Shown: positions 10,652-51,957 of the stretch, in pieces
How the letters are laid out: every line of letters starts with the position of its first letter
Numbering within the stretch: position 1 is the first letter of the stretch
Assembly: GCF_963576675.1 (NCBI RefSeq)
Contig: NC_088913.1
Coordinates: forward strand, 82,707,001 to 82,771,000
Origin: Euphorbia lathyris
Lineage: Eukaryota; Streptophyta; Magnoliopsida; Malpighiales; Euphorbiaceae
Length of the DNA: 64,000 nucleotides
Reading direction: 5' to 3'
The notes under the pieces: generated by a model
Told to the model about the DNA's origin: nothing
Database searches by the model: none
The model's input: only the letters and a program-made list of their open reading frames with translations
Program-made: the position numbers and the translations under genes

Positions 10652-10655
10652 GGAC

Positions 10656-15933: not shown

Positions 15934-15965
15934 CGGGAATTTTTCTTTATTTTTCTTTTTTTTTT

Positions 15966-25281: not shown

Positions 25282-25299
25282 TCCCCAGCAGAGTCGCCA
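25282..25299 (-). other. Primer binding site of element A
   Basis: Minus strand TGGCGACTCTGCTGGGGA, two bases inside the 5' LTR end. It is the complement of a tRNA 3' end terminating GAGTCGCCA. Tat/Ogre elements are reported to use tRNA-Arg; the tRNA identity here is inferred, not shown. Confidence 0.8.
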
Positions 25300-27635
25300 C
25301 TTGTTAGACGAGGTGCCGCGGCCTAATCTCCCGGGCGGACCGGGGGGTGGACAACCTCATGGCGACGTAAGCGGTGATTGGCGCCGAAAGCAACCAATCG
25401 TGGAATCAAGCTGCTCGGCAGGACCGGAGCTCGGAGATATGGAAGAGTCACCACCCACGAATGGGAAAATGAACACCGATCCCTTGCGGGAGACCGGTGT
25501 GGGTTCGGAAAACTTAGGTACGAGACGAGAAGGCTAGCTCCTTTCCGGAGAAAGGCTACTAGGCACCCCGACATCGCCCGGTTATGAACCACCGGCCTCC
25601 TACTCAGCATGTTAGGCGATAACGGACTAATCGTATACTTCTTTAAGTTTAAAATTCATTTGAAACCCTTTTCTTTCTCTTTTTAGAAACCGTTTTGAGC
25701 ATATATTATTGAAAAGCCACATCAGTAAAGAATCACCCATTTATGTTTATACATACACAGAAAGGGGGAAGAAAGAAGTGATTTATTTACACCCGTATTA
25801 AATGTGATGTTGTGTGTTCATTCTACATTAACTTATTTCCCCCAAAACGAGTTCATTTACATGGTTCGCACCTTAATCGCCGTTGGAACGATTTAGGTGC
25901 GTTTTAAAACCCCGTTTGATGAAATTTACCCGAATCGCCGTTGGAACGACTCGAGTATTTGAAAAACGTTTGAGATAAAAACCTTTTAATGAGAAAACAT
26001 GGTTTAAACATACAAGTCAATTTTATTTTGTACAAATTCTTTGAGAAAATGATTCAAAACTCTATTATTCACAAAGAAAACGATTTTAATTACAATGATC
26101 ATTTAATCCGCCTTTGGAACAGATTAAGGTTTTAAAACGTGGTGTTTTGAGAAACGATTTGAAATATTAACAAGAATGACTCTATTTATTAGAAATCTAA
26201 GAACTCATTAGTTTAAATAATTCAATTGAAAACTCTCTTTTTGCGATTTATTTTCTCCACTTATTTAATGGACTCTTTACTAATTATAATTACCATAATA
26301 AACCCATTTAAACCACCATCCATACTCAAACAAAGTCCACTTGAAACATGGACCCATGATTAAGCCCAAAAGAACAAAGAAAGCAATTCTAACATATATA
26401 TATATATTTAAATCAAAAATAGAATATGAAAATAAAAGTTAATACAAAAGGAACTATATGTATATAAAAATAATAGGTACAATATATCTATACTTTGAAA
26501 ATGTGAAAATAGTAAGTAAATCCTATAACTAAGAAAATAATATTTACCTAAAAATATTTTCATTCAATAATCAAGATAACCCAAATATCCCAAAACTATA
26601 TGTATATATACATAACTAGTATAGTTTTAAATATAAAAAATGACACATACTAATATTTATCCATTATTTCTCAAAATATCAAGTAACTAATATTCAAAAC
26701 ATAGCCTAAATCAATAAAAAGGAAATACATATATATATACTTATACTCATATTGTAAAATAGAATAAAAATGATATACAAATATTCTAACATAAATATAT
26801 ATGCTAAAGTTCTAAAATAATTTAAAAAACATATATTACATAATTATACATATATATACTAAGCATCAAAAGCTTAAAAGTTAAGAAAAAGGGACTGAAA
26901 TGACATTTTTTACATTTTGGCAGATTTATCGACGGAAAATCCGTCGGTAAACAATATTTAGTGACAGAATAGGTAAATTACAGCAGCACTCCTAAATTTT
27001 TCCAGATTTATTCAAAAGCTTTAAATTAAATCTAATTCAATCGTTTTGGATTTCCGAACTATCAAAAATGGATCATAGTCGAAAACGGAAGTTCCTAAAA
27101 CGATGTTTTTGTTTTAAAACGTTATTCGGGAAATTTCTTTTAAATTAAAAACTTATAATTACAACGTTTTCGACACCCGAACTACCTTTTTATTGGATCA
27201 CGGTTCGTATTGGAATATCAAAACGAGGTTTTTTATTTTAAAACAAAACCGGATTTTATTCAACACGAAGTGAAAATTAAATAAATACGCTAATTAAATA
27301 AAGTGTGACAAAATAAATAAGTAACTAAATGAATAAAAACTATAGCATAAAAATATAAATAGAAGAAGAGAATAACTTAAATAAAATAAAGAGTCTAGTC
27401 CTCGGATAATACCTTGAATTCGGTATATGACAGTCGAAGCCGATTGATTCCACGAACCGCGAGCTTCCGTTTTTTTATAAAAAATTTAGTAAAAATTGAA
27501 CTTAGGAAATTTGGAGATTTTCAATTTTTAGGAAAAAAAATGTTTTCTCCTAAAAAAATCAACTTCTTCTCTCTAGAAAAAATATTCTAGTGTGAGAAGC
27601 TCTCCATTCCTCCTCCTTTTTCCTTTTTTTTGCAT

Positions 27636-27670
27636 GGGGATCCGTGCCTTTTATAGGCAAACGGGTCCCC
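27636..27670 (-). promoter_or_regulatory. LTR promoter of element A (5' LTR): TATA box in an inverted repeat
   Basis: Minus-strand TATAAAA at 27649-27655, flanked by arms 27636-27648 and 27656-27670. This is the copy that would drive the element's RNA; transcription would start about 30 bases further along the minus strand, giving a short U3 (about 600 bases) and a long R/U5. Confidence 0.6.
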
Positions 27671-27675
27671 GGACC

Positions 27676-27880
27676 AATGGGCGACGCCCAAAAGAAATTG
27701 GGCGTCGCCCATTGGGGTTGGGCGGCCGCCCAACCTTGTTGGGCGATCGCCCAATGGCGTTGGGCGAGCGCCCAACGCTAGGTTGGGCGCCCACGCCCAA
27801 CCGCCGTCGGACGTTCACCCGACGTGGTTGGGCGCCCGCCCGACGGCCCTCGCGGTGTGCCCCGAGCCATCGGGCGTGCG
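27676..27880. repeat. GC-rich palindrome array in U3 of the A 5' LTR
   Basis: Same kind of array as 10656-10870, with point differences in spacers and in one palindrome (CCAACCTTGTTGGGCG here). Confidence 0.8.
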
Positions 27881-28268
27881 CACCCTGCGGCCGTCGAGCG
27901 CGCGTCCCGCGCCGCCGGACGCTCACACGTCGCGGCCGCCGAACGCGCGCTTCGCGCTACCGGGCACGTGCGCTCAGCGGCCCACAAGGGCACGCCCCGT
28001 GCCACCGGACCCGGGCATTACTCGGACGTCTAGAGCGTGCCACTTACGGTGCGTCCGACGGACGCCGAGCGCACGTCCCGCGCCGCCGAGCGGGCGTTCG
28101 ATTATTGTCGTCCGCGTGCCGGATGCCGCTAAGCACCCGCGCCGTGCCGCTAATTTTCCTTCGCTTATTATTCTTTATATATTTTTTAAAACTTCCGGAA
28201 TCAATCGCTTCAACCGTCTTGTTTTTAGGTTTTCGTCACAGGTCCTCCGACTCGGTGTCTACAGCCGT

Positions 28269-33573: not shown

Positions 33574-33845
33574 ACCGCTGTAGACACCGAGTCGGAGGAC
33601 ATGTGATGAAAACCTGTAATAAGACGGTCGAAGCGGTTGATTCCGGAAGTTTTAAAACAAAAATATATAATAAAAAGGGAAGAAGTTAGTGGGAGTCGTG
33701 GTTGTCGAGTGGACGGCTCGCGAGTGCTCAGCGACGTGGTGCGAACGCCTAGCGGCAGCCGACGCGCGTCCGATGACAGTTGGACGCGTGCCCGGCAGCG
33801 CAGGGCGCACGCTTGACGTCCGCTGGGTGCGTGCGCCCGACGGTC

Positions 33846-34145
33846 GTTGGGCGAGCGCCCAACGACGTGGGGCAAACGCCCAACGTAGGTGGGGCGGCCG
33901 CCCGACGTCCGTTGGGCGGACGCCCAACATCCGTTGGGCGAACGCCCAACCAGCGTTGGGCGAACGCCCAACCTGCGTTGGGTGCGCGCCCAACGAGAGT
34001 TGGGCATGCGACCAACGAGAGTTGGGCGTTCGCCCAACCAGGTTGGGCGTTCGCCCAACATAAGTTGAGCGTCCGCCCAACTAGGTTGGGCGTCCGCCCA
34101 ACCTGCTTTGGGCGACACCCAATCTTAATCGGGCGTCGCCCAAAG
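33846..34145. repeat. GC-rich palindrome array in U3 of the B 5' LTR, about 14 units
   Basis: About 14 units of GTTGGGCG-NN-CGCCCAAC with centres GA, AA, GG, TT, TC and others, and 3-7-base spacers such as GTCC, ATCC, CAG, GAGA. Period is about 22 bases. A few arms are mutated (GGGTGCGCGCCC, GGGCATGCGACC). Confidence 0.85.
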
Positions 34146-34150
34146 TCTCC

Positions 34151-34184
34151 GGGGATCCGTGCCTATAAAAAGGCACGGATCCCC
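34151..34184 (+). promoter_or_regulatory. LTR promoter of element B: TATA box in the loop of a perfect 13-bp palindrome
   Basis: Arm GGGGATCCGTGCC (34151-34163), loop TATAAAAA (34164-34171), arm GGCACGGATCCCC (34172-34184). The arms are exact reverse complements. In the other LTR the same structure is at 49642-49674 with loop TATAAAA. Immediately upstream is the palindrome array, downstream an A/T-rich leader. Confidence 0.7.
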
Positions 34185-34936
34185 ATGCATTAGAAGAGGA
34201 GAAATTTTTGGAGCTTTCTCACTCTAGACATTTTTAGAGAGAGAAAGTTAATTTTTTGGAGAAAATATTTTTTTTCTCAAAAAAAATCCAAATTTTCCAA
34301 AGTTGAATATTTTATCGAAAACACAAAAAAACGCCGGAAAATCATAACTCGTGGAATCAAACGACTTCGACTGTCAGATACCGATCTTAAGGTATTATCC
34401 GAGGACTAGACTCGTTTTATTTATTTCATTTATTTATTCGTTTAATTTATTTTCTTATTTTTTTTAGAATATAGTTTTTATTTATTTAGTTATTTATTTA
34501 TCACGTCTTATTTAATTTCCCGTATTTATTTATTTTTGTCTAGTATTAAATAAACATTCGTTTTTGTTTTGAAATAAAAAACCTCGTTTCAATATCCCAA
34601 TACGAACCGTGATCCGATTCAAAGGTAGTTCGGGATTAAAAAACGTTGTAATTATAAGTTTTGAAAATATTTCGAAATAACGTTTTAAAATAAAACGTCG
34701 TTTTAGGAATCTCCGTTATAGACTATGATCCAATTTTGGTAGTTTGGGGACCCAAAACGATAGAATAGATATAATTTAAAGCTTTTGAACAAATCTGGAA
34801 ACTTCTGGACTGTTTCTGTAATTCTGCCTTTTCTGTCACTAACAGCAGATTGGCGACGGATTTTCCGTCGGTAATCTGTTGGAATCCGAAAATTCCTCTT
34901 TTAACCCTCTTTTCTCAACCTTTTGGTATTTATACT

Positions 34937-34939
<3 letters not shown>

Positions 34940-34996
<57 letters not shown>
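34940..34996. repeat. (TA)n microsatellite in the B 5' LTR
   Basis: An uninterrupted TATATA run of about 57 bases. The same place in the 3' LTR (about 50429-50467) is roughly 20 bases shorter. Confidence 0.9.
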
Positions 34997-35000
<4 letters not shown>

Positions 35001-35648
35001 ATTATGTAACATGATTATAAAAATTATTTTTGAGTCCTCTAACTATTAAATACGTATTATATAGCTTATATTTCACATTTGGAATTTAAACCGTTTTAAT
35101 TTGGTTTGGTAAAGCATTATATTTGTATATATATATGGTTTTTGGCTCATTTAAGTTATATTGGCTATTATTTAGAGTGGAAGTTATTTTCCATATATTT
35201 ATTATGTAAAACTATTTTGAGATAAAAGTTATTTTCTATTTATGACTTTTGCCTATTATTCTCATATGTTTTTTTGTAGAATAAAAATGTATTATACTTA
35301 GTATTCTTCACCTTTATTATTATACATATGATTAGTATCTTTTACTTACCTTTTAACCTATATCCTTATTTTTAGATAAAACTATGTATATATATATGTA
35401 TTTCTGTTTTATTTTTGTATATATGTATATATTTTAAAATATATTTGGTTGGGTGAATTTGGGTTTAATTCATTGATGGTTGCAATTGTGTTCAAATAAA
35501 GGTTAATTGAGTGAAAATGGGAAAATAAAAGACAAAAAGAGGTTTCAAGTTAATTGTTTAAATTAAAAGCTTTTCTAAATATTCCTAAAGTGTAAATAAC
35601 GTTTTTTTGTCATTTTTAAGCCATTTTCTAAAACATCGCGTTTTAAAA

Positions 35649-35907
35649 CCTTAATTCGTTCCAACGACGGATTAAGCGAACATTGTAATTAAAATTGTTT
35701 TTCTTGTGAATAATGAAGTTTTGAATTGTTTTCCTAAGTAAATGGTTTTGTACCAAATAAATTGACTTGTATGATTAATCACGTTTTTAGATTAAAACTG
35801 TTTGCTCAACGTTTTCAAACGATCGAGTCGTTCCAACGGTGATTCGAGTGAACATCATTAACAAGACTTTGAAACGTATCTAAATCGTTCCAACGGCGAT
35901 TAAGGTA
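35649..35907 (+). repeat. Three stem-loops with a nearly constant TTCCAACGG loop in the B 5' LTR
   Basis: Hairpins at 35649-35676 (loop TTCCAACGA), 35821-35850 and 35877-35907 (both TTCCAACGG), in the same order as in element A. Arms differ (CTTAAT/ATTAAG, TCGAGTC/GATTCGA, AAATCG/CGATTA) but pair with each other with few mismatches. Confidence 0.7.
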
Positions 35908-36480
35908 CGAACCGTGTAAATAAACTCGTTTTTGGGAGTGAGATTAGCGTAGATGTAATATACGACATAAAGCCTAAATCACACTATGAATAAATCAATT
36001 CTTCCTTCTCCCCCTCTCTCTCCTATGTATTTTAAATTTATGCAAAATGGGTGATTCTTTACTAAAGTGGCTTTTAATGACATGCTCAAAACGTTTTTTA
36101 AAAGCGAGAAAGAAAAGGTTTCAAATGAATTTTAAACTTAAAAAAATATGCGATTAGTCCGTTATCGCCTAACACGCTGAGTAGGAGGCCGGTGGTTCAT
36201 AACCGGGTGATGTCGGGGTGCCTAGTAGCCTTTCTCCGGAAAGGAGCTAGCCTTCTCGGCTCGTACCTCAGTTTCCCGAACCCTCACCGGTCTCCCGCAA
36301 GGGATCGGTGACATTTTCCCATTCGTGGGTGGCGACTCTTCCATACTCCGAGCTCCGGCCCTGCCGAGAAGCTTGATTCCACGATTGGTTGCTTTCGGCG
36401 CCAATCACAGCTTACGTCGCTATGAGGTGTCCACCTCCCGGTCCGCCCGGGCGAGGCCGTTCGGCACCTTGTCTAACAAG

Positions 36481-36498
36481 TGGCGACTCCGCTAGGGA
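36481..36498 (+). other. Primer binding site of element B
   Basis: TGGCGACTCCGCTAGGGA, two bases after the 5' LTR end, differing from that of element A at two positions. Confidence 0.8.
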
Positions 36499-38411
36499 AG
36501 CGAGAAATTTGATTCCGGAAGGCGTGTATTAAGCCCTTAACGGGGACGGATCGTATTATTTCTTTTCGTATGCATTCATAAGCATTATTACAAACCTTTT
36601 GGGTAATTTTCGCGAAACCTCTAGCGAGAGTCCATTCGTCGCTCGAAAGAGGCTAGTGTAAGTTCCCCCTTACAATAAGGCGCCAAAGGGTCCCCATCCA
36701 TTCGTTAGGGGCGAATTTGTGCGGTCCTGTGAGGTCCCGCGATCAGCCGTGTCAGCATATAGTAGCCTTAGAAGTTGCCATAGGATTACCCATTACTATT
36801 TTTGATGTGATAAATGAATCAGTTCGTGTTTTCAAATTGCCATGATACGTGTCTAATCCTAAAATATGTAAAGAAAATGGAACGATACGTTAATATATAC
36901 TCTTAAACCGATATACAAACTACCCCAAAATATCGAAACGATTCGAACTAAAGACGACTTAGTCATCTCGTATGAATGAACTTGTGCGACCCGCCTGGTC
37001 CCTTTCCGTGTCCCGAAGAAGGCACATGTTCAGGAAATGCGTTGTGACGTAAGCACGTATTAGTTCAAATCGGTTTGATATTAAGGATAGTTATATCTCG
37101 ATTCAAAAGACTATATTAACAGTAGTCGTTATTCACATTCTTTAAAATACGTTGGGATGAAACGAGATTATGACAAAACGAAAACAAAGAACATTTCTGT
37201 TTCGAATGACCCTGTTGTAATGTAAAGAGTTTCGCAAACGTGGCCCGTCCCTTCCGAATAAAAGACGAGCTCTTACGTTATGCCTTGTGTTGTTCTTAAA
37301 AGAAATGGACGTGTCCGCAAAAGTGACTAAGAAAATAAAAGAAAAGCAAAAATAAAAAACGACCAAAATCGTTCTGTATCTACGATATATATCCATCCCG
37401 AGGGTAGTTAAAGAAAATGAACCAATATCGTTAAATACGTGCCTCGAACTGGTGTATACGCCGTTTAAAATCATGAAGCCGAATTGAGCTAAACCGCATG
37501 ATTGCACCATATGGACGAGACTGTAGGTTTGACTAATGGCTCGATCATTTCGGCCGTTACCAAAACTACAAGAAATATGGCCCGATCTGCGTGTTTACTT
37601 AACTCGTGCCTAAATGAAAAAAAACGGTAATATCCCTGCTTCGAATAAGCATGCGATTCAATGAAACGTTGATTTTATATAACCATGCTAGGGCGATATA
37701 TCCCGTAGATTGGAAGGAATAAAAAACTTGTTAATAGCCAAAGGATTACCGTGCGCTCAAATAAGACTCCCCGTCTTTTTACGTAGCCAAAACGAGCAAA
37801 CGGATTCTTAACGCTAAAAACAAACACGTTACGCGATGAGTCCGTTCCTTAAAATAAAAAGTGCTTTCATCACTAAATAAACACGTGGTTACGTCTCTCG
37901 ATAGATCCAAAAAGATCCCATTGTAATCCAAAAATCGAGACACGAACCTACGCGGATAAAAGGGAACGAGTCATTGTCAATAACGAACGATTGAACTGAA
38001 AGAATAACTCATACCACGTCTAAAATCCGAGATGCGTTCAAAGGGAGTCAAAACCCGAACTAATGCATCTCGCAAAATAACGAGGGACGAGTTATTCAGA
38101 AGAACAATCCAGTTGGTCGATATCTTAGTCACTAAACGTTGATACGTCAAAACGAACTGTATTGTCTGATGAATGATTTACTTCTCCGCAATAATCGACG
38201 GCATCACGCGTCCCCTGGACCGCAATGTGAGCCCCAAACCAAAATCCTAGGAAAGAGACTTGGACCATCGAGTGTGTGGAGGAATAAGGGTGGAAGAGAG
38301 ATGTTGTGATACATGTAATTAGACTAACGTTTGTTCTTCTTATATTATATATCCGTAAATAATAAACGCACACACCACGAATCATGCATATAAAATCATG
38401 CATACATACTA
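36499..38411 (+). other. Leader of element B between primer binding site and gag
   Basis: Noncoding, homologous to the leader of element A. No extra ORF and no motif that I can name. Confidence 0.6.
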
Positions 38412-41400
38412 ATGGATACCGTTCGCGCAGACTTCATCATTAAACGGTTGTGGTTTCGCGAGAGTAACCGGCTAGTCAGTCAGTTTGATCAGCTACAGAT
38501 TGACAGTTCCGAATCGAGAGTAGTAGCTTCTGAATCATCTTCATTCAAGTCAGCTTGATATTCTGTCAGTATGTCTACACCAGATGAGAGGATTGCTGGG
38601 TTAGAAAGAGTCGTAAACAATATCAGCGATCAGTTGACTACAATTTTAGACCAGCTAACTGGGCTGGCACTGAAGGATAATAAGAGGGGGTGTAAGCGTA
38701 CTCAGAATGACGTGAACACTGGTCCCCGCTTTGGGAACGAGGATGACTATCAGGATTACATCCAGAAACATCTTGAGAAGGAGAAAATTAAAGGAGAGGA
38801 ATGGGAGCAGCACATCACTCAGGAGGTGCAAGATCTGCATGGAGGAAGCTCCGGGGGTCAGGATTTTTATGATTTGAAGAACTGTTTATCGGTAACGGCT
38901 TTGCCTTTGAAATTCCGGATCCCGGACATGGAGAAGTTCGATGGAACAGGGGATCCTACCGCTCACATGAATCGGTATGTTGCTGTGATGAAGCATACGA
39001 TCTTGACTGAGGAGCAAGTCTTGGGGCTGTTTAATGCTTATCTGGAGGGAGCTGCCCTCATATGGTTTCATGCATTGCCGTTGGTAACAAAGAGAAATTG
39101 GAAGGAACTAGCAAAGGCATTCATTACCCGATATAGCTTCAACACTATGGTGGAGGTTACTTTGAAAGAGCTGGAGAGCACCAAGCAGCAAGCGGGGGAG
39201 TCCTTGTTTGACTTTATGGGCAGGTGGAGAGCCAAGGCGGCAGTGATGAAGCAGGAGCCGCTTGAGCAGGATCAGATTCGAATGGTAATTGGCAACACAT
39301 CGCCGTATATTAAGGAGGAGCTGCGGTATGTGCCTTTCACCAATTTCAACCAAATGTACTACTACGCCTTGACAGTTGAGGGAGAACCGAAAATGGCTCA
39401 TACTAAACGGAGGAAGTTGGGGAATGGTGCCGGAGGGCCGAGTGCTCACGTAGAACCCATCATGGTGGGAGTGCTTGAACTCAATACCATCGAGAAAACT
39501 AGCCATGGGGTAAGTGCAATCGGATCTAAGTTGGAGGAAAACTTGGGGGTAGGGTCATTCTGCGAATTTAAGGAGGAGATGTTGGACTCCGATGAGAAAA
39601 AGAATGTGGGAAATGGTTTATACGTGTCTGTTTTGGAGGAAGAGCCAACGGAAGAAGTGATGGACGATAGAACTAAAACTGAGGAAACTGAAGAAGTATC
39701 ATATCGGAAGATCATGCCTGTGTTGAAATTGTTTAGTGGGGTAGAAGACCCCGAAGTTCATTTGTATGGATACGTATGTGCTATGTTTGGGGAGCCATAC
39801 AAAGTGGAAAAAGTCGCTCCATGGTTCTATCTTTCGCTGGTGGGCGAACCTTTGAAGTGGTTTCAATCGCTACCTGACTCGACTAAGCATGATTGGTCAC
39901 TAATGTCAAGCTTGTTTTTGATGAAGTATCGAAGAGATAAAACACAAGCAGGGGAACATAGCGCGATGCAAATTGGGCCTATCAAACGTCCGTTTCTGAC
40001 TGTCAGCAAATATAATGAAGGGAAGGACCCCATGGAGCACCTGCATTTTTATCTGTCGGCTATGGGTCCTCTAGGTTTCAAAGAGGAGGAGATTACGAGC
40101 TTGTTTTGCAACTCATTGGCGGGAGAGTCACTGGTGTGGTATATGTCTCTTCCAATGCACGTTAAAGTAGATTGGGCAAAAATGACTAAGAGATTCATCA
40201 AGAAATACGCCGCATGGGAATGTCCAGAGGAAATGCCTGCATTACCCGAAGAGGAGGCACCTGAGGCAGTAATAGCCATGTCTAAGTACAAGGGAGATGA
40301 GAACCCCATTGATCACATAAACCGTTTCCGTACTTACATGTTTGATGCGGGACTCTACCGAAGTGAGTTGGTCCAGCATTTTCCAAAGACACTCATAGGA
40401 GAAGCTTTGATGTGGCACCGAATGCTCTCGGCCAAGACAAAAGGGGACTGGGGATCCCTCATGGAGGCCTTTGTGCAGAGGTATGAGATGTACATTCCAT
40501 GGACAGGGTCGTTGGAAGATTTAGAAAGGATCAAGCAATTTCCCGAGGAAGCATTCGTGGATTATGTTAGAAGATGGAGGTTCAAGTATGCTTCATGTCG
40601 GGTCACCTTGAGCGTTCAGGAGCAACTCATGTGCATCCGGAAGGGTGCTATTCCACTCGTGGCTAGAAGAATGAACGGAGTGTTCCTCAAGGACTATGAA
40701 GAACTGATAGGCTGGGCTCGGTTTGGATCGTCGGACCCTTCCTACGTAAATCCGAATGTCCCTCACATAATGGATCTGATGGTCGTGGACATTTGGGGAA
40801 ATTCCTCCGACGAAGAAGGTATCAATCAGAGGGTTCCGATCAACATCTGGGATGAGTCTGATGATGAGTCGGAAGTGGCTGCTAGCGCCGAAGGAAAGAT
40901 TCTGCCAGGTTTTGAGATCTTCAATGATGTTACCAGTTGGGGCAAAGGAGAGGCGAGCTGCTTCGTCGAGGAGATCATGATGTTAGATCTGAATGCTGAG
41001 GATCAGGTCATCACTATTGAAGCAACTGTGGGAGGGGTGGACGAGCCCAACACCCCCAAGGCTTATGAGAAACCCGAGAACCCCGATGATGAAAATTGTA
41101 TTACCGCTTTATTTGAATCCGATGATGTACTTGCCAACACTATCAATAAAATGAATTCTGATTTTGCTTACTTGCTTGATGTTGATTCTGATCATTCCAT
41201 GCATTCTCATTCATATAACATGCCTACATTTGAAATCAATACAATAGAAATGTCAACTTTCAATCTTGGCACGGATGAAAATCCTAAACTTATACAAATT
41301 GCTCAAGAATTAACTACTGAAGAGAGGAAAGAATTTGAGAGAATAATTAAAAAATACGAAATAGTGTTTGCTTGGACATACGAAGACATGCCAGGAATCG

Positions 41401-44400
41401 ATCAATCAATCGTAACTCACCGTATTCCGACATACCCCGATGCTAAGCCTGTGAAACAGAAACTCCGACGCATGAGGCCGGAATGGGCAGATAAGATCAG
41501 AGAAGAAGTGAAGAAACAGTTAGAAGCGGGGTTCATCGAAGTAATCGACTATCCCTCTTGGGTCGCAAATGTAGTGCCCATCGCGAAGAAGGACGGCAAA
41601 GTGAGAATGTGCGTCGATTATAGAGATCTTAACAAGGCGTGCCCCAAGGATGAATTCGCATTGCCTCACATCGACGTATTAATCGACAGTGCAGTATCGA
41701 GCGTCTTGCACACAAATGTGGACGGCTTCATGGGCTACATGCAAGTTCAAATGGCAGAAAAGCACAAGGCAAAGACCTCGTTCACAACTGAGTGGGGAAC
41801 GTACTGCTATAGGGTAATGCCGTTTGGTTTGAAAAATGCCGGGGCAACTTATCAACGAATGGCTACGGCCCTGTTCCATGATATGATACACAAAGAGGTA
41901 GAAGTTTATGTGGACAACATGATGGTCAAGTCGGAGACAAGAGAGGGGCATTTCGCGGCACTTGAAAAGGTTTTGGCCCGAATTGCAGAGTTCAAGCTAA
42001 GGTTGAACCCGAAAAAGTGCTTCTTTGGCGTTTCATCGGGGAAGATCTTAGGCTATGTGATCAGTAACAAGGGGATTGAGGTGGATCCCGATAAGGTAAA
42101 GGCCAAACAGGAAATGCCAGCACCCAAGAATGAGAAAGAAGTGAGAGGATTTCTGGGGCAGGTTCAGTATATCAGTCGGTTCATAGCACGACTCACTGCG
42201 ATCTGCGAGCTGATCTTTAAGCTGCTACGGAAAGATCAACCAACGGTTTAGAATGATAAGTGCCAGCAAGCATTGGAGAGTGTCCGGAACTATCTGTCTA
42301 ATCCACCAGTTTTAAGACCGCCTAAACTTGGAAAACCGCTTCTCCTCTATGTAGCAATCGAGGAGCGATCTATTGGGGCAATGCTGGCCCAGGAAGGGGA
42401 CATCGGGGTGGAGCATGCGGTGTATTATCTAAGTAAGAAGTTCCTGGAATACGAGCTTAAGTATAACATGATCGAAAAGACGTGCGTGGCAGTAGTATGG
42501 CTAACAAAGAAACTACGGCACTATTTTCAATCTTACAAAGTGATCATTATTTCTCGGATGGATCCCGTGAAGTATCTGTACCGAACTCCGTCTCTAACAG
42601 GGAAGCTAGCCCGATGGTTGTTGCTCTTGTCCGAATTTGACATCGAATATGTAACGAAAAAGGTTATTAAGGGAAGGGCCGTAGAGGAAATTCTGGCTAA
42701 TCAGCCTCTAAATGCGGAAGAGGAAGAGATAAACTATGATTTCCCCGATGAGCACTTGAACGCGATAGAAGTTATACCGTGGAAAATGTTCTTCGACGGA
42801 GCGGTTAACTCAAATGGAGCCGGGGTAGGAGTACTACTTATCTCTCCAGAAGGAGAAATGGTCCCAATGGCAAAGAAGTTATCCTTCCCTCTCACCAATA
42901 ATATGGCCGAGTATGAAGCGTGCATCTACGGGTTAGAGTCGTTAGCAGCACTGGGAGCATCATATGTTGAAATTTAGGGCGACTCAAAACTGATTATCGA
43001 ACAAGCACAGGGAAGCTGGGAAGTAAGGGAAGAAAGGTTGCGCCCATACCTAGACCAATTGGAGGGACTGGCGCAGAGATTCAGCGAGTGTCGTTTTTAT
43101 CACATTCCTCGAGCACAGAATCAGGCAGCGGATGCTTTGGCCACTTTGGTGTCGGTATGGGATAACCCTCGGAATCTTGCCTCGAAGCCTCTAGTGCTGA
43201 GAAGGTCCCACAAACCGTGCTATGAAGACATAATGCTATTGGGGGCAGATGAAAAGCCTTGGTATTTCGATATCGTAAACTTCATGAAAAGTGGAACATA
43301 CCCAACAGAATCAGAACTTAGGGATCAGGCTGTGATCAGAAGGTTAGCTCAGCAATTTATCATCCACAACGACTTGCTTTACAAAAGACACACCGATGGT
43401 TTACAACTGAGATGCTTGAATGAGGGAGAAGCCCGTGAGGCAATGGAGTCAGTACACTCGGGAATTTGTGGAGCCCATATGGGAGGAGCAGTATTAGCAA
43501 AGAAAATCATAAGGCAAGGCTTCTATTGGCTCACCAGGGAAAGATATTGTAACGAATATGCGAAGAAATGCCATGATTGCCAAATCCACGGAGATTATAA
43601 TCACTTACCAGCTATGGAATTGCACGTGTTAGCACCCATTTGGCCGTTTGCGGCTTGGGGTATTGACATCATCGGGGAGGTGAGGCCTAATGCGTCAAAC
43701 GGGCATAAATTCATTGCAGTCGCCATTGATTACTTCACCAAGTGGGTAGAGGCGGAATCATTTAGCAAGTTGGGGTCTAAGCAGATGATGAAGTTCATTG
43801 AAAAGCACTTAATCACCAGGTTCGGAGTGCCTCATCGCATGATTACGGATAATGGGGTCCAGTTTCAGGGAGAGGTGAGAAGTCTCTTCCAAGAGTACGG
43901 TATTGAGCATCATATGTCTTCTCCGTATCGCCCACAAGCTAATGGGGCAGTAGAGGCGGCTAATAAGAACCTTAAAAGGATTCTCGTAAAGATAGTAGAA
44001 TCACACCGGAACTGGCACGAACAGCTTTCGCTCGCTTTATGGGCTTATCGCACGACAGTTAGAACGTCAACTGGGGCAACGCCATTCTCCTTGGTATATG
44101 GTGCGGAAGCCGTTCTCCCAATCGAGGTTGAAAAGCGATCGTTGAGAATCGCAGTAGAAGCAGAGATTCCCGAGACGGAATGGGTGAAGAAGCGATATGA
44201 ACAGTTAGCATTGGTAGACGAGAAAAGAATGGAGGCCCTTTACCATGTGCAGTTATATCAGAGAAGGATGGCCCGAGCCTTCAATAAAAAGGTCAAGGCC
44301 AGCCCTATCAAAGAAGGGGACCTGGTGCTAAAACAGATCCGAATGACGCACACCGACCCTAGGGGCAAGTTCAGGCCAAACTGGGAAGGGCCATTCCTCG

Positions 44401-44504
44401 TGAAGAAAATCCTACGCAAAGGGGCGGTTAAGCTTACTACTATGGACGGTATGGAATTCTCCGAACCTACCAATCTGGATAGGCTTAAGAAATACTTTTT
44501 GTAA
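38412..44504 (+). pseudogene. Element B gag-pol: four capsid-like units, RT, two RNase H domains, integrase; protease deleted
   Basis: The frame starts MDTVRADFIIKRLW at 38412 but meets TGA at 38556-38558; an in-frame ATG at 38571 opens 1226 codons. Capsid-like units lie at about residues 117-190, 384-455, 477-546 and 569-640, each with Y/F-x-G-x-x-D/N-P-x-x-H, G-E-x-L-x-W and D-W signatures. Compared with A, the zinc-knuckle block (after residue ~310) and the whole protease plus G-patch segment (junction near residue 770) are missing without loss of frame. The RT catalytic motif reads YVDN (Asn codon 41915-41917). TAG codons at 42249-42251 and 42975-42977 each stand where A has Trp. The second RNase H (FFDGA, NMAEYEA) and integrase (GIDIIG, TDNGVQF, VEAAN) are otherwise preserved to the stop at 44504. 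Confidence 0.93.
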
Positions 44505-44538
44505 AAAAAAAAGAAAAAAAAAGAAATGAAAATTCCCG

Positions 44539-44689
44539 ATAGGTTGAAAACCCGTAAAGGGCGACCTATGCAACAATAAGGGACATCCCAATGGGTGAAA
44601 ACCCGAAAGGGCACTCATTTGAAAATTCCGGGATAGTAAAAGGAGAGATGAAAAATCGCTGGGATCTGAAAACCGAAAAAGGCGGATCC
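44539..44689 (+). repeat. Three compound hairpins between pol and the PMD gene (element B)
   Basis: Hairpins at 44539-44569, 44590-44619 and 44662-44689. The shared core is T-GAAAACC(C), an A-rich loop, then GG(G)C. The outer stems (ATAGGT/ACCTAT, AATGGGT/ACTCATT with one G-U, GGATC/GATCC) differ. They begin 35 bases after the pol stop and end about 270 bases before the PMD stop codon on the other strand. Confidence 0.7.
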
Positions 44690-44956
44690 TGGTAACAGTA
44701 GTTATATTTTGAGCAATTATGAAAATAATGTATGAGCGGCTAAGTATTTCTATTGTTTGTAAATAAATAAAGGCATGAATATATTTGAAGAGGATGATTG
44801 GAATCATTACAATCTACTGAATGCATTGTATTATGAATCATGAGTTATACATTTCCTACCTCTTTCACATAAAAAGCCTACGTCCTATCCACCCCTCTCC
44901 CTATATACAAGCTATACATCGGGGTAATACTAATGAAAAACCTACAAATAATAAGC

Positions 44957-47780
44957 CTAATAAGGGGGAAGATCCCAGTAATCCTCGAAGTCCCTCAGAC
45001 GAGAAGCCCGCTCCGCAGATAAGGCCTCCTCAGCGATCCGACGACCCTCCTCGGCGGCAAGGCGCCCCGCGGTCTCCACTCGCGTCCTCTCCTCGGTAGC
45101 AAGACGCCCCTCGGTCTCCGCTTGCATCATCCCCGACCAATGAGCATTCCTCTCCCGATAGACCTGGCCGACCCTGGCATCGGCATCCCCCAGTGACTCG
45201 CTCCGCCTCAGCTCATTTGCATGGAGATCGCTCTGTAAAAATATATATATATATAAGAAAAAGGAAGAAGAACAGACAACAACAGAAGTCATACATACAT
45301 ATGTGCATACATTCCACTACACTAAAATAAAATAAGAATACTCACCAGGTGGCTGGTGCAATGCAGGCTGAGCCGCTCTCTGAGATAACCCGACAACCCC
45401 ACGTAATCAGTGCATGTCTCCCTCGAAGTATGGAGGGCATCCGGGGGATCAAACGACACCCTCGATGTGAAAACAGGAGGAGCTATCTCAACGCCGGCAT
45501 AGGCCACTCCTGTCTCGTCGTAACGAACTACCGAGAAGTCCCTCCCAAAGTCAGGGATAGGTACCCCTAAGGGAGGCCACTCTGGCCGGGCAATGCCTGA
45601 GGACTCACCCGCATAATAGGAGGGCTCGCCCGCAAGCGTTCGAGCCTGAGCACCGTCGAAAAAGTCGGACATCCGAGCGCTCCTCAAGGAACCCTCCTGC
45701 ATATAAAGACACAATGAGTATCCCTAACCATCTCGCGAATAAAGAATAAAAAAGGGGTCGAACACTCACCGGGAGCTCCTCTCGACCAAAAACCGCAGCG
45801 ACAGCCTCTGCTGAAAACACGTCCGTCCTAGGATCCACATCCATCGCAACCTCGGGGGCATCCGTCGGAGTCAACAGCGTCGACAAATAGCGAGCGCGAC
45901 CCCCGGCATGGTCCCACACATCTCGAGGGGCAAACTCGCGGGTCAAGTCACGACGAATGTCCGACAGGGGCATGGTCCTCACAGCAAACATGGACACAGG
46001 AATCTCGCCAGGCGACCAATGCGAGGCGCTAACCCCGGTGATCCCCCGATCGCCCAAATACCATACCCGCACGCAGGGGCCTGTAAGTATGCACCGCTGC
46101 CCCTGGATGCGGGTAACGTAAGCGTAGTCGGGACCAAAGTCGAGGTCGTCCCATCTGAATCGAATCTAAAAAAAAGAGAGAAAAGTCAGGTCTGATCAAA
46201 CAAAAATCTAGCATAGTTAGAAGAGGTTTACCTGCCCCAAGGTCCGCGAGTCAATCCACGCTAGGAATCGCGCCACTTTCCGCCTCTCCTCAGTGCCCAG
46301 ATCAAAATCACCCCACCGAGCTATAAGTGGAAGCCTAACCACCCGAGGCCTGCACCTGCGTGTGCACGGAAGAATCCGCCTCTCGTAAGCCCAAACCTGC
46401 TCGTAGAAACAAAGGTTACTAACAGAAATCGCGAAAAGAATAAAGAAACAAGCTAAGGATGAACGATGTACCAGGAGAGCAAAGGTGTAACCACCGAAGT
46501 CCTTGCGCTTCCGGCAAGTCAAATCCAAAAACTTGTACAGAAAAGCCAAGCCGGCTCCTACCCAATCATAAGACGACGCCGCGTCCAAATCACGAAAGGC
46601 CTGGATAAGACCCGCGTGTATCGTCCCGCTCTTGGTGCGGAAGATCGTCTCGCCCAAGGCATATAGAAGAAAGCTGCGGACGGCCCGATCTGTGTCGTCT
46701 AGCCCGCAGGAGTCCCTGCGACTCAATAGTCCGGATGTGGTAATAAACTTCACCGGAGAGGCCTTGACACCCGTGTAGACTCCGGGTCCAATCAAAGTAG
46801 ATAGCTCGGTGCGGTCGACCCGGGGACGCACCATGTTGAAGAAGAGGGGAACCGGGATACCGCTCCCCCACAACCCGGTCAGCAGGGAGAAGTCACGGGG
46901 CGAGATCGTCATCTCCCCAAACGAAAGGTGGAAGGTGTGGGTCGAGTCTACCCATCTCTCACATAAGGCGCGAAGGCCGAATCGATCACACACTCCGTTG
47001 GCATGAGGCAACGCCAGGATAAAAGGCTCAAAGCCCAACTCTCGAACCCGGGCTTTAGCCGCCGGGCTCAGCATGGCATACCAGACATGAATCTCCTCAG
47101 TGGTCCCGGAAATACCAATGGCCTGGAAGGAACAGAACGGGTAAGTTTAAATCTCGCTCCTAGGCTTGTGTCTAATAAAGGTTTGTTAACCTAGTTGTTC
47201 TTTCGGTCATGCTTAAGTCTAACCTAGAGACTCTTTGTCAATTAGGACCGTCATTTGGTGAAATTTTGTTCTTAGGGTCGTTTGTATAAGATTTGACTAG
47301 TTCATTATTCTTTGGTGTTCCACTCTCCTGCGTGTTGGCAAAGAGATTGATCCAATTTTAACATTTAATTTGGTCGTTTAGGCTCTTTCTACTATTCACA
47401 TGCACTATTCACGTTTTTACTATTAATGTGCTATTCACGTTTCTACTGTTGACATGCATTGTTCGTGTTTTTACTATTCACATGCATATAATTCACATTC
47501 TTTCAAAAGATAAATAAAACGTTGCTTATGGGCGTAGAAATTCGTGTTTTCTAGCTAAAAGTCTTCTAAACGACTTAGAGGTTGGCATGCAAATCATGTT
47601 CAAAGTAGGGGTACTAAAGCCTAAAAGTCTAGTAAAAGGATAAAAGAGTAGAAGGGTACTTACCTGGTTAATGTGGGTCCGGCTCATATGGGAATCAGGA
47701 TCCTGAAAGGGGACCACTCCCGACAAGTTCTCGAAGCCCGCATCCATGCCCTTCGTGCCATCGTATCTATCCGAATCCAT
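44957..47780 (-). CDS. Antisense plant mobile domain (PMD) protein gene of element B, six exons, open
   Basis: Exons on the minus strand: 47664-47780, 46472-47122, 46232-46396, 45770-46165, 45346-45696 and 44957-45232. All introns are GT-AG and phase 0, and exons 1-5 have exactly the same lengths as in element A. The joined frame has no stop and codes 651 residues: a short acidic exon 1 (MDSDRYDGTKGMDAG), then the PMD (RWVDSTHTFHLSFGEMTISP, LLTGLWGSG, RRDSCGLDDTDRAVRSF, KDFGGYTFALL, GPCVRVWYLGDRGITG, CTDYVGLSGYLRERLS), and an Arg/Glu-rich coiled coil (EERTRVETAGRLAAEEGRR) ending DLPPY. Function is not proven; host PMD proteins MAIN and MAIL1 influence gene expression and transposon silencing, so a role in dealing with host silencing is a fair hypothesis. 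It is convergent with pol and has its own TATA box. Confidence 0.9.
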
Positions 47781-47858
47781 CGTGAGAATGCTCAAAGTTA
47801 GAAGTTAGAGAGAGAGAGAAGAGAGAGAAGGTGTGGGGTTGAAATGAAACCCCACCAC

Positions 47859-47866
47859 CTTATATA
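47859..47866 (-). promoter_or_regulatory. TATA box of the antisense PMD gene in element B
   Basis: TATATAAG on the minus strand, 79 bases before the ATG, in the same CCTATATAAGGTGGTGGGG context as in element A. The leader after it is CT-rich (CTTCTCTCTCTTCTCTC). Confidence 0.65.
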
Positions 47867-48236
47867 GGAAAAGGGAATGGCATTCCCGTAAATAGTAAAA
47901 AATATATGATGTGACATAAAGGTGAAAAGTAAATAATTAATTACCAGGTGCACAGACCTCCGATTCACAGTCCGTTTCAGCCTGCGTTTCTGCCAGGAGG
48001 TGACCAATATCCCAAGAATATGACTCCAGACGACAGTCGAAATTTTACAGAACAATGGCGCCAGTCAAAATACAGATAACAGTCAACAGAAAGATAATTC
48101 TTAGTCTGAAGTGTTCCAAACAAACGGGTAAGCGCGTTCCTACCAAACAACTCAAAATGCCCGAGACAATAGCCCCAGTGAAAATACAGACGACAGTATC
48201 TTAGAATTCAAAATTGCTAGAAAGAACCTTTTTGCT

Positions 48237-48800
48237 TTTAAGCCATCTTACCTACGGTCCACGACCGAGGTTGCCTTTGAGCCATCTTACCTACGGTCCA
48301 CGACCAAGGTTGCTTTTGAGCCATCTTACCTACGGTCCACGACCGAGGTAGTTTTTGAGCCATCTTACCTACGATCCACGATCGAGGTAGCCTTTGAGCC
48401 ATCTTACCTACGATCTACGATCGAGGTAGCTTTTGAGCCATCTTACCTACGGTCCACGACCGAGGTTGCTTGTGAGCCATCTTACCTATGGTCCACGACC
48501 GAGGTTGCTTGTGAGCCATCTTACCTACAGTCCACGACCGCGGTTGCTTTTAAGCCATCTTACCTACGATCCACGATCGAGGTAGCTTTCGAGCCATCTT
48601 ACCTATGGTCCACGACCGAGGTAACTTTTGAGCCATCTTACCTACGGTCCACGACCGAGGTTGCTTGTGAGCCATCTTACCTGCGGTCCATGACCGAGGT
48701 TGCTTTTAAGCCATCTTACCTACGATCCACGATCGAGGTAGCTTTCGAGCCATCTTACCTACGGTCCACGACCGAGGTAACTTTTGAGCCATTTTACCCG
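48237..48800. repeat. 39-bp tandem repeat, about 14 copies, 3' region of element B
   Basis: Units read GAGCCATCTTACCTACGGTC followed by CACGACCGAGGTTGCTTTT, period 39 bases with occasional indels. This is the reverse-strand relative of the element A array, but with more variation (ACGATCCACGATCGAGGTAGC variants). Confidence 0.88.
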
Positions 48801-49060
48801 CGATCGATTTAGAGACTAGGGTCGCTAGAAAGAGTTGTTTACCCGCGGTCGATTTAGGCTAGGATCCTTAAGGAAAACGTCCGCCGACAGCCGATTCGAA
48901 GGCAAAGACGGAGGGGATCGAAGACGAAGCTGGAGCACGCAGCGCGAAGATCAGGTATTCTTCCTCCTACTCTATATGTGTCTTTTACTTTAATATATTT
49001 CCATTGCATGTGCCGTGTTAGCAAAAAACGTTTTCAAAGCACACACATCACTGTCAAAAT

Positions 49061-49077
49061 AGAAAAGTAGGGGCAAC
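49061..49077 (+). other. Polypurine tract of element B
   Basis: AGAAAAGTAGGGGCAAC directly before the 3' LTR start, identical to element A. Confidence 0.85.
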
Positions 49078-50426
49078 TGTAGACACCGAGTCGGAGGACC
49101 TGTGATGAAAACCTGTAACAAGACGGTCGAAGCGGTTGATTTCGGAAGTTTTAAAACAAAAATATATAATAAAAAGGGAAGAAGTTAGTGGGAGTCCCGG
49201 TTGTCGAGTGGACGGCTCGCGAGTGCTCAGCGACGTGGTGCGAACGCCTAGCGGCAGCCGACGCGCGTCCGACGACAGTTGGACGCGTGCTCGGCAGCGC
49301 GGGGCGCACGCTTGACGTCCGCTGGGCACGCGCGTCCGACGGCCGTTGGGCGAGCGCCCAACGACGTGGGGCAAACACCCAACGTAGGTGGGACGGGTGC
49401 CCGACGTCCGTTGGGCGGACGCCCAACATCCATTGGGCGAACGCCCAACGCCTGTGCGCCCAACGAGAGTTGGGCGTTCGCCCAACCAGGTTGGGCGTTC
49501 GCCCAAAGCAAGTTAGGCGTTCGCCCAACATAAGTTGGGCGTCCGCCCAACTAGGTTGGGCGTCCGCCCAACTAGGTTGGGCGTCCGCCCAACCTACTTT
49601 GGGTGACGCCCAATCTTAATCGGGCATCGCCCAAAGTCTCCGGGGATCCGTGCCTATAAAAGGCACGGATCCCCATGCCTTAGAAGAGGAGAAATTTTTG
49701 GAGCTTTCTCACTCTCGACATTTTTGGAGAGAGAAAGTTAATTTTTTGGAGAAAATATTTTTTTTCCCAAAAAAAATCCAAATTTTCCAAAGTTGAATAT
49801 TTTATCGAAAACACAAAAAAACGCTGGAAAATCATAACTCGTGGAATCAAACGACTTCGATTGTCAGATACCGATCTTAAGGTATTATCCGAGGACTAGA
49901 CTCGTTTTATTTATTTCATTTATTTATTCGTTTAATTTATTTTCTTATTTTTTTAGAATATAGTTTTTATTTATTTAGTTATTTATTTATCACGTCTTAT
50001 TTAATTTCCCGTATTTATTTATTTTTGTCTAGTATTAAATAAACATTCGTTTTTGTTTTGAAATAAAAAACCTCGTTTCAATATCCCAATACGAACCGTG
50101 ATCCGATTCAAAGGTAGTTCGGGATTAAAAAACGTTGTAATTATAAGTTTTGAAAATATTTCGAAATAACGTTTTAAAATAAAACGTCGTTTTAGGAATC
50201 TCCGTTATAGACTATGATCCAATTTTGGTAGTTCGGGGACCCAAAACGATAGAATAGATATAATTTTAAAGCTTTTGAACAAATCTGGAAACTTCTGGAC
50301 TGTTTCTGTAATTCTGCCTTTTCTGTCACTAACAGCAGATTGGCGACGGATTTTCCGTCGGTAATCTGTTGGAATCCGAAAATTCCTCTTTTAACCCTCT
50401 TTTCTCAACCTTTTGGTATTTATACT

Positions 50427-50470
<44 letters not shown>

Positions 50471-51952
50471 ATTATGTAACATGATTATAAAAATTATTTT
50501 TGAGTCCTCTAACTATTAAATACGTATTATATAGCTTATATTTCACATTTGGAATTTAAACCGTTTTAATTTGGTTTGGTAAAGCATTATATTTGTATAT
50601 ATATATGGTTTTTGGCTCATTTAAGTTATATTGGCTATTATTTAGAGTGGAAGTTATTTTCCATATATTTATTATGTAAAACTATTTTGAGATAAAAGTT
50701 ATTTTCTATTTATGACTTTTGCCTATTATTCTCATATGTTTTTTTTTTAGAATAAAAATGTATTATACTTAGTATTCTTCACCTTTATTATTATACATAT
50801 GATTAGTATCTTTTACTTACCTTTTAACCTATATCCTTATTTTTAGATAAAACTATGTATATATATTTATGTATTTCTGTTTTATTTTTGTATATATGTA
50901 TATATTTTAAAATATATTTGGTTGGGTGAATTTGGGTTTAATTCATTGATGGTTGCAATTGTGTTCAAATAAAGGTTAATTGAGTGAAAAGGGGAAAATA
51001 AAAGACAAAAAGAGGTTTCAAGTTAATTGTTTAAATTAAAAGCTTTTCTAGATATTCCTAAAGTGTAAATAACGTTTTTTTGTCATTTTTAAACCATTTT
51101 CTAAAACATCGCGTTTTAAAACCTTAATTCGTTCCAACGACGGATTAAGCGAACATTGTAATTAAAATTGTTTTTCTTGTGAATAATGAAGTTTTGAATT
51201 GTTTTCCTAAGTAAATGGTTTTGTACCAAATAAATTGACTTGTATGATTAATCACGTTTTTAGATTAAACCTGTTTGCTCAACGTTTTCAAACGATCGAG
51301 TCGTTCCAACGGTGATTCGAGTGAACATCATTAACAGGACTTTGAAACGTATCTAAATCGTTCCAACGGCGATTAAGGTACGAACCGTGTAAATAAACTC
51401 ATTTTTGGGAGTGAGATTAGCGTAGATGTAATATACGACATAAAGCCTAAATCACACTGTGAATAAATCAATTCTTCCTTCTCCCCCTCTCTCTCCTATG
51501 TATTTTAAATTTATGCAAAATGGGTGATTCTTTACTAAAGTGGCTTTTAATGACATGCTCAAAACGTTTTTTAAAAGCGAGAAAGAAAAGGTTTCAAATG
51601 AATTTTAAACTTAAAGAAATATGCGATTAGTCCGTTATCGCCTAACACGCTGAGTAGGAGGCCGGTGGTTCATAACCGGGCGATGTCGGGGTGCCTAGTA
51701 GCCTTTCTCCAGAAAGGAGCTAGCCTTCTCGGCTCGTACCTAAGTTTCCCGAACCCTCACCGGTCTCCCGCAAGGGATCGGTGTTCATTTTCCCATTCGT
51801 GGGTGGCGACTCTTTCATACTCCGAGCTCCGGCCCTGCCGAGCAGCTTGATTCCACGATTGGTTGCTTTCGGCGCCAATCACCGCTTACGTCGCCATGAG
51901 GTGTCCACCCCCCGGTCCGCTCGGGCGAGGCCGTTCGGCACCTTGTCTAACA
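49078..51952 (+). repeat. Element B 3' LTR (2875 bp)
   Basis: Homologous along its length to 33579-36478. Differences cluster in the palindrome array (49344-49635; some units lost, one unit reduced to GCCTGTGCGCCC) and the TA run. TATA palindrome at 49642-49674; stem-loops at 51122-51150, 51294-51323 and about 51350-51381. Confidence 0.95.
49344..49635. repeat. GC-rich palindrome array in U3 of the B 3' LTR
   Basis: The same type of units as in the 5' LTR, but with a different number and order, showing loss and gain of units since the two LTRs were copied from one template. Confidence 0.8.
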
Positions 51953-51957
51953 ACCGC

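What the first reader, a model, noticed from the sequence alone, without database searches (positions are those of the whole stretch)
44957..47866. A retrotransposon carries an open six-exon plant mobile domain gene on its antisense strand
In element B a complete 651-residue PMD gene with its own TATA box lies between pol and the 3' LTR, opposite to gag-pol. Six exons, five GT-AG phase-0 introns and no stop codon are visible, while gag-pol of the same element has an in-frame stop after Met, two TAG codons and an inactivated RT motif. A spliced gene on the antisense strand keeps its introns through reverse transcription of the sense RNA, which explains why introns persist. PMD proteins of the MAIN/MAIL group affect transposon silencing, so the element-borne copy could act on host silencing or on the element's own promoter.
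Basis: partly seen in the sequence, partly recalled or inferred. Interest (0 to 1): 0.9.

Follow-up and report, generated by a model that had tools for sequence, protein, structure and literature searches.

The report
Spliced antisense gene inside plant retrotransposon
A giant plant retrotransposon carries, on the strand opposite to its own genes, a spliced gene for a plant mobile domain protein that selection has kept working over the family's history; such genes are already known from this retrotransposon lineage, but their job is not, and this copy gives a clean place to test it.

Summary
Element B (33.6-52.0 kb) carries an antisense gene at 44957-47780: six exons, five phase-0 GT-AG introns, 651 residues, no stop, PF10536 at E 4.5e-24. 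Element A (8.3-28.3 kb) carries the same gene, exons 1-5 of identical length, with three TAG codons. A/B dN/dS is 0.18 (0.14-0.23) at dS about 1.1; 100 neutral shuffles gave 0.72-1.21; gag gives 0.19. A 120-bp promoter window is 95% identical, introns 57-72%. Annotated Euphorbia lathyris relatives mostly use the same exon joins.

It is not new in kind: PF10536 is reported in 57% of Ogre elements (PMC6317226), two clades of the domain are exclusively Gypsy-encoded (PMC5418596), and a counter-silencing role has been suggested (PMC8616336). The 'open gene in a dead element' contrast is weak: unselected, the gene stays open in 38-48% of simulations.

Best reading: an accessory gene of an Ogre-lineage element, selected while the element was moving, probably acting in the nucleus on the element's transcription. 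Expression was not testable.

The parts
33578..51953 (+). Element B, Ty3/gypsy LTR retrotransposon, about 18.4 kb; LTRs 33578-36479 and 49077-51953, 96.4% identical by blastn; 5-bp target duplication ACCGC if the LTR is taken as TG...CA (one base inside these ends)
38559..44504 (+). Broken gag-pol of element B: three consecutive same-frame pieces parted by TAG codons, after a TGA at 38556-38558; RT motif YVDN; no counterpart to A's protease/G-patch stretch
44957..47780 (-). PMD gene of element B, six exons, 651 codons plus stop, PF10536
47664..47780 (-). exon 1 (117 nt)
46472..47122 (-). exon 2 (651 nt), holds most of the PMD match
46232..46396 (-). exon 3 (165 nt)
45770..46165 (-). exon 4 (396 nt)
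45346..45696 (-). exon 5 (351 nt)
44957..45232 (-). exon 6 (276 nt with stop), charged C-terminal tail; A's exon 6 is 63 nt longer, in frame
   Evidence: the matching region of relative P0001 is a long helix and the only part of a poor structure model with pLDDT above 50
47841..47960 (-). Promoter block, 95% identical between A and B over 120 aligned bases without gaps; TATATAA at 47866-47860 and the dyad GGGAATGCCATTCCC at 47887-47873, both unchanged in A
   Evidence: chance 6.6e-12 at a background identity of 0.70, 2.6e-6 at 0.80, 0.008 at 0.88, per window, uncorrected
48232..48798 (.). 39-bp tandem array (14.5 copies) between the PMD promoter and the 3' LTR; unit consensus differs from that of A at 2 of 39 positions
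8268..28264 (-). Element A, same family in opposite orientation, about 20 kb; LTRs 8268-11246 and 25301-28264, 97.8% identical by blastn; target duplication ACGGC on the same reading; long gag (21422-23413) and pol (15966-21053) ORFs
12460..15470 (+). PMD gene of element A: same six-exon structure, 672 codons, three in-frame TAG codons (335, 361, 447)

Best explanation
The gene is an inherited accessory gene (extra ORF) of a giant Ty3/gypsy retrotransposon of the Tat lineage, most likely the Ogre clade, probably in Euphorbia. SHOWN: an antisense PMD gene with the same exon-intron structure and a strongly similar promoter in two separate insertions, whose protein has been under purifying selection about as strong as that on gag. 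INFERRED: the gene is transcribed from its own promoter opposite to the genomic RNA and spliced; its introns persist because the sense RNA that is reverse transcribed reads their splice signals backwards; the protein, a PMD core with a charged helical tail, enters the nucleus and acts on transcription or silencing of the element's own copies, most likely counter-silencing. Selection acted while copies were moving; B itself is a decaying copy that happens still to be open.
For: PF10536 match. Exons 1-5 of equal length and all splice sites GT-AG in A and B. dN/dS 0.181, bootstrap 0.143-0.226, 648 codons after dropping A's 3 stop codons and 21 unaligned codons of A; 100 neutral shuffles gave 0.72-1.21, and third codon positions carry 308 of 566 differences. 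gag 0.194 (494 codons); pol pieces 0.027-0.084, and 0.233 for the first part of pol (162 codons). Promoter window 95% against introns 57-72%. Exon joins in 8 E. lathyris proteins: junction 1, 2 of 2 that span it; 2, 6 of 7; 3, 7 of 8; 4, 8 of 8; 5, 6 of 6; the other three hits are told under evidence against. Second RNase H-like match between RNase H and integrase in A, the position given for Ogre and Retand (PMC6317226). PMD in 57% of Ogre elements (PMC6317226). A counter-silencing role is suggested for TE-encoded PMDs (PMC8616336) and for MULE-captured PMDs (PMC5418596).
Against: No transcript, protein or phenotype was seen. Only two nucleotide copies were compared, so lineage-specific selection cannot be parted, and dS near 1.1 is close to saturation. 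One of the five wrong frames also gave a low dN/dS, 0.35 (an antisense frame with 21-28 stops); the other four gave 1.28-2.21. A second, overlapping alignment of gag gave 0.29, so gag's value depends on the alignment. The promoter and array conservation could partly reflect recombination between families, because the sequence just beyond the PMD gene towards pol is also 81-93% identical. Annotated relatives do not all follow the model: P0005 has 15 extra residues at junction 2 and P0007 departs at junction 3; P0009 joins exon 1 to exon 3, P0010 and P0008 enter exons 3 and 4 from unrelated gag- and copia-like sequence. The DOWN motif of PMD-dependent Arabidopsis genes is not enriched in the window: 3 hits with one mismatch, 4.5 expected. 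The structure model is unusable (mean pLDDT 35). Nothing ties the protein to silencing except its distant relatives.
Confidence: 0.55

Rival explanations
1. Same accessory gene, but the protein serves another step: nuclear import of the integration complex, choice of integration site, or genomic RNA handling, not silencing.
For: Purifying selection says only that the protein matters to the element. The review PMC7264820 (passages read) proposes retroviral-accessory-like roles for antisense ORFs and cites nuclear localisation for Grande's gene23.
Against: A separate promoter would give expression independent of the genomic RNA (inference); the domain's studied host relatives act in transcription and silencing (PMC7156037, PMC5418596, passages read).
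Confidence: 0.25
2. The antisense RNA, not the protein, is the functional product, by pairing with the genomic RNA or feeding small RNAs.
For: Promoter block more conserved than the coding DNA; dsRNA regulation is proposed in PMC7264820.
Against: Third-position excess and dN/dS 0.18 point to translation; introns and synonymous sites have diverged widely.
Confidence: 0.04
3. Copy B's PMD gene has been taken over by the host (domesticated) while gag-pol decays.
For: Open PMD, broken gag-pol in B.
Against: The element still has both LTRs and target duplication and its LTRs differ little (K 0.0255); without selection the gene stays open in 38% of 3000 simulations at 1.87% change and 48% of 3000 at the 1.28% given by the LTRs.
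Confidence: 0.04
4. A recently captured host gene, a neutral passenger in one element.
For: It has introns and a promoter like a host gene.
Against: Present in both elements at dS about 1.1 with dN/dS 0.18; annotated relatives in E. lathyris; PMD is recurrent in Ogre elements (PMC6317226).
Confidence: 0.03

Closest known systems
Extra ORFs with the plant mobile domain in Ogre-clade retrotransposons (Neumann et al. 2019, PMC6317226, passages read; Steinbauerova et al. 2011, not held, known here only as cited by others)
   Same: Ty3/gypsy Tat-lineage element, second RNase H before integrase, PF10536 in an extra ORF; reported in 57% of Ogre elements
   Different: The passages read do not state strand or splicing of those PMD ORFs; here the gene is antisense, has six exons and a conserved promoter region
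Gypsy-encoded PMD-A1/A2 clades (Ikeda et al. 2017, PMC5418596, passages read)
   Same: PMD encoded by Gypsy elements across angiosperms
   Different: Clade membership not tested here; no reference sequences at hand
Antisense ORFs of Retand elements and Grande gene23 (Vicient 2025, PMC11963269, parts 1-3 of 5 read; Vicient and Casacuberta 2020, PMC7264820, passages read)
   Same: Antisense ORF between pol and the 3' LTR, tandem arrays in that region; for Grande gene23 an own promoter and a nuclear protein
   Different: 97% of Retand clusters have Transposase_28 (PF04195) in an antisense ORF; the protein here carries PMD and no Transposase_28 match
MAIN / MAIL1 (PMD-C host genes; PMC7156037, PMC9899485, passages read)
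   Same: Pfam domain
   Different: Host genes in another published clade, part of a complex with PP7L; no evidence of that here
VANC anti-silencing proteins of VANDAL transposons (PMC10398659, abstract and outline read)
   Same: Would be the same logic: element-encoded protein, tandem repeats in non-coding element DNA
   Different: No protein relation tested; DNA transposons; VANC target repeats diverge rapidly, whereas the array here is better conserved than the gene

Membership tests
Plant mobile domain (PF10536) | Match above the curated cutoff | tested here: met
   85.7 bits against 34.9, residues 90-315
LTR retrotransposon, intact insertion | Two LTRs and target duplication | tested here: met
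   ACGGC (A), ACCGC (B) with the LTR read as TG...CA
Tat lineage, Ogre or Retand | Second RNase H (aRH) between RNase H and integrase | tested here: met
   A pol: RT_RNaseH 972-1074, RVT_3 1126-1243, rve 1410-1506; criterion from PMC6317226
Ogre clade | Reverse transcriptase phylogeny | not tested
   no reference set at hand
Ogre clade | Primer site for tRNA-Arg | tested here: inconclusive
   TGGCGACTC(C/T)GCT follows the 5' LTR in both; its match to tRNA-Arg is recalled, not computed; Ogre use of tRNA-Arg is in PMC9289625
Ogre clade | Two polyprotein ORFs parted by a short (average 274 bp) region | tested here: inconclusive
   A has gag and pol ORFs 368 bp apart, but the weak protease match is in the second ORF and decay could make the gap
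Ogre clade | PMD in an extra ORF (57% of elements) | tested here: met
   PMC6317226
Retand-type antisense ORF | Transposase_28 (PF04195) | tested here: not met
   only PF10536 matches the 651-residue protein at E up to 0.1
Gypsy PMD-A1/A2 clade | Position in the PMD tree | not tested
   three protein searches returned only Euphorbia lathyris proteins and one Apium protein
MAIN/MAIL (PMD-C) silencing factors | Position in PMD-C; interaction with PP7L | not tested
   no PMD-C reference set at hand; interaction needs an experiment
VANC-like anti-silencer | Binds the element's repeats and removes silent marks | not testable with these tools
   needs expression in trans and methylation data

The most novel reading that the evidence does not exclude
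The PMD protein is a sequence-specific counter-silencing factor of the retrotransposon: expressed from its own promoter when the LTR promoter is silent, it binds the conserved promoter dyad and/or the 39-bp tandem array beside the 3' LTR and opens only members of its own family, an Ogre counterpart of VANC in VANDAL transposons; host MAIN/MAIL silencing would then be the tamed form of the same machinery.
Probability: 0.12. Interest if true: 0.8.

Novelty: new member of a known kind. Interest (0 to 1): 0.36.

Why it matters
PMD proteins such as MAIN and MAIL1 are host silencing factors of unknown mechanism that share ancestry with Gypsy-encoded proteins. A retrotransposon family that keeps its own PMD gene under purifying selection, with a conserved promoter region and a definite exon structure, makes the question 'what do element-borne PMD proteins do for the element?' testable. 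It also warns that surveys which look for uninterrupted extra ORFs can under-read spliced antisense genes, and that plant annotations can list such element genes under host-gene names (one relative, P0004, is named 'protein MAINTENANCE OF MERISTEMS-like').

Tried and rejected
Considered and rejected: 'one open gene in a dead element shows function' (P(no stop) 0.38 at 1.87% change per copy, a rate that I had set higher than the MAFFT LTR figure; 0.48 at the LTR figure of 1.28%). Told against my own reading of decay: three or more stops, as in A, arose in only 2.4% (rate 1.15%) and 1.0% (rate 0.87%) of simulations; these used B's coding sequence and a uniform site model, so methylation hot spots (recalled as common in silenced elements) or older decay may explain it, or A's copy was damaged before insertion. 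A link to the DOWN motif of PMD-dependent Arabidopsis promoters (no enrichment). A strict dyad in the 39-bp array: 10 of 15 B units have all 5 arm pairs, 1 of 13 A units does, so it is not a kept feature of the family. Structure prediction of relative P0001 failed (mean pLDDT 35.3, pTM 0.21), so no fold search was run. No solved structure matched (best E 0.82). In one search three low-identity gag rows (28-48%; dN/dS 0.29, 0.46, 0.40) were not used as the gag figure. A PMD tree was not built. In the ten paper searches I saw no paper describing splicing of, or selection on, an antisense PMD gene of an Ogre element; most hits were seen as listings only, and Steinbauerova 2011 is not held, so this is not a claim that it is unpublished. 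PMC11152179 (passages) had nothing on strand or splicing.

Full report
WHAT IS THERE. Two Ty3/gypsy elements of one family lie in the window in opposite orientation. A spans 8268-28264 (LTRs 97.8% identical by blastn) and B spans 33578-51953 (96.4%). Taking the LTRs as TG...CA, both have 5-bp target duplications, ACGGC and ACCGC. In both, a gene runs against gag-pol between pol and the 3' LTR. Exons 1-5 have equal lengths in both (117, 651, 165, 396, 351 nt); A's exon 6 is 63 nt longer, in frame. The protein matches PF10536 (E 4.5e-24, residues 90-315), and the A exon-2 frame does too (E 6.1e-21).

SELECTION. A and B coding sequences differ with dS about 1.1, dN 0.20 and dN/dS 0.18 (bootstrap 0.14-0.23) over 648 codons; 3 stop codons of A and 21 unaligned codons of A were left out. 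Third positions carry 308 of 566 differences. Moving the differences to random sites gave dN/dS 0.72-1.21 in 100 trials. The five other frames hold 11-26 stops in B and gave 1.28-2.21, except one antisense frame at 0.35. Every exon is below 0.37, but exon 1 (39 codons) has a wide interval, 0.15-0.78. gag gives 0.19 at dS 1.04 (494 codons; a second, overlapping alignment gives 0.29); pol pieces give 0.03-0.08 at dS 0.54-0.85, and the first part of pol 0.23. So the PMD protein has been about as constrained as gag and less than the pol enzymes. Because LTR divergence is small (K 0.017 and 0.026), most A/B divergence predates both insertions, so the selection acted while the lineage was moving (inference).

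PROMOTER. A 120-bp window around the TATA box (B 47960-47841) is 95% identical, with TATATAAGG and a GGGAATGCCATTCCC dyad unchanged. Introns are 57-72% identical and the coding DNA 71%. The 39-bp tandem array upstream (B 48232-48798) has a unit consensus that differs at 2 of 39 positions between A and B. Against a purely functional reading, the stretch just beyond the PMD gene towards pol is also 81-93% identical, so exchange between families cannot be excluded; and a perfect dyad with six-base arms and a three-base loop is common as such (48 in the window).

RELATIVES. Three protein searches returned 11 Euphorbia lathyris proteins (P0001-P0010, P0012) and one distant Apium protein; the first two scored only the 7997 candidates sharing most words. 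P0001 (704 residues) covers all of B at 70% identity; A is 82% identical to it, and B is 83% identical to P0004. Of 8 E. lathyris proteins aligned, those that span a junction use the predicted join in 2 of 2, 6 of 7, 7 of 8, 8 of 8 and 6 of 6 cases for junctions 1-5; P0005 has 15 extra residues at junction 2 and P0007 departs at junction 3. The other three are partly at odds with the model: P0009 joins exon 1 straight to exon 3, P0010 enters exon 3 from gag-like sequence and P0008 enters exon 4 from copia-like sequence. Several are named as isoforms in NCBI records; whether reads support them was not visible. The window is therefore probably from Euphorbia lathyris or kin (inference).

THE CONTRAST WITH gag-pol. 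B's gag frame has a TGA at codon 49 from the Met shared with A, pol has two TAG codons and YVDN for YVDD, and there is no blastp counterpart to A's pol residues 165-485. But a coding sequence of this length stays open in 38% to 48% of simulations of unselected decay, and A shows the opposite: long gag and pol ORFs, PMD with three stops. Three or more stops arose in only 1.0-2.4% of simulations at A's rates (uniform site model on B's sequence), so A's damage is heavier than that simple model predicts. The contrast in B is no evidence that this copy is kept by the host.

WHAT IT IS. The second RNase H-like match between RNase H and integrase puts the element in Ogre or Retand by the criterion of Neumann et al. 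2019 (PMC6317226, passages). That paper reports the plant mobile domain in 57% of Ogre elements and Transposase_28 in 23% of Retand elements; the PMD protein here has no Transposase_28 match. The primer site looks like the tRNA-Arg site of Ogre, by recall. Ikeda et al. 2017 (PMC5418596, passages) found PMD-A1 and PMD-A2 exclusively in Gypsy elements. PMD is also the most frequent non-canonical domain in a survey of plant LTR-retrotransposon consensuses (PMC9289625, passages). Antisense ORFs between pol and the 3' LTR are general in recently active Retand elements (PMC11963269, parts 1-3 of 5 read), and in Grande one has its own promoter (PMC7264820, passages). The finding is therefore a well-preserved member of a known kind; its explicit exon structure, shared promoter block and measured constraint are the added value.

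HOW IT MAY WORK. Shown: spliced-gene anatomy in two insertions, constraint on the protein. Inferred: antisense transcription from the TATA promoter and splicing; retention of introns through the sense RNA; nuclear action. Most likely role: counter-silencing or activation of the element's own copies, an idea already in print for TE-borne PMDs (PMC8616336, passages); for MULE-captured PMDs Ikeda et al. make the same suggestion. A role in import or integration is the main rival. The DOWN motif linked to MAIN/MAIL1 targets (PMC7156037, passages; the MORC1 sequence CATGCAGTTT from PMC9899485, passages) is not enriched in the window.

LIMITS. No expression data; the genome search tool did not complete (12 identical requests); structure prediction failed; no PMD or RT tree was built; Steinbauerova et al. 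2011, cited by others for PMD in Gypsy elements, was not readable.

Noticed in passing
window 61598-62932 (+): A 444-residue ORF matches Transposase_28 (PF04195, E 2.2e-9), the domain typical of Retand antisense ORFs, so a second Tat-type element with the other kind of extra ORF may lie at the window's end.
   Followed up: no
window 38559-42251 (+) and 21422-23413 (-): Retrotrans_gag matches as three stretches in B and two in A, and non-corresponding gag parts of A and B resemble each other at 28-34% identity (one pair 20%): the polyprotein may hold tandem, diverged gag domains. No within-protein hit was printed.
   Followed up: partly
window 15966-21053 (-): A's pol carries a G-patch match (PF01585, E 1.6e-5) between a weak protease match and the reverse transcriptase; B has no counterpart to that stretch.
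   Followed up: partly
window 48232-48798: In B's 39-bp array 4 of 15 units change CGGTC/GACCG to CGATC/GATCG on both arms together, keeping a dyad; 11 of 13 A units have one mismatch.
   Followed up: partly
P0005, P0009, P0010 (Euphorbia lathyris proteins): Annotated isoforms join a gag domain to PMD-gene exons: P0005 and P0009 just before the PMD start codon, P0010 at exon 3, as if transcripts from another element splice in, or as annotation chimeras.
   Followed up: partly
window 56144-56347 and 56490-56693: Inverted repeat of 204 bp, 92% complementary, 142 bp apart; possibly a foldback or small DNA element.
   Followed up: no
window 59496-60080 (+): ORF with a match to the endonuclease/exonuclease/phosphatase family (PF03372, E 1.2e-6), perhaps a LINE remnant.
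   Followed up: no
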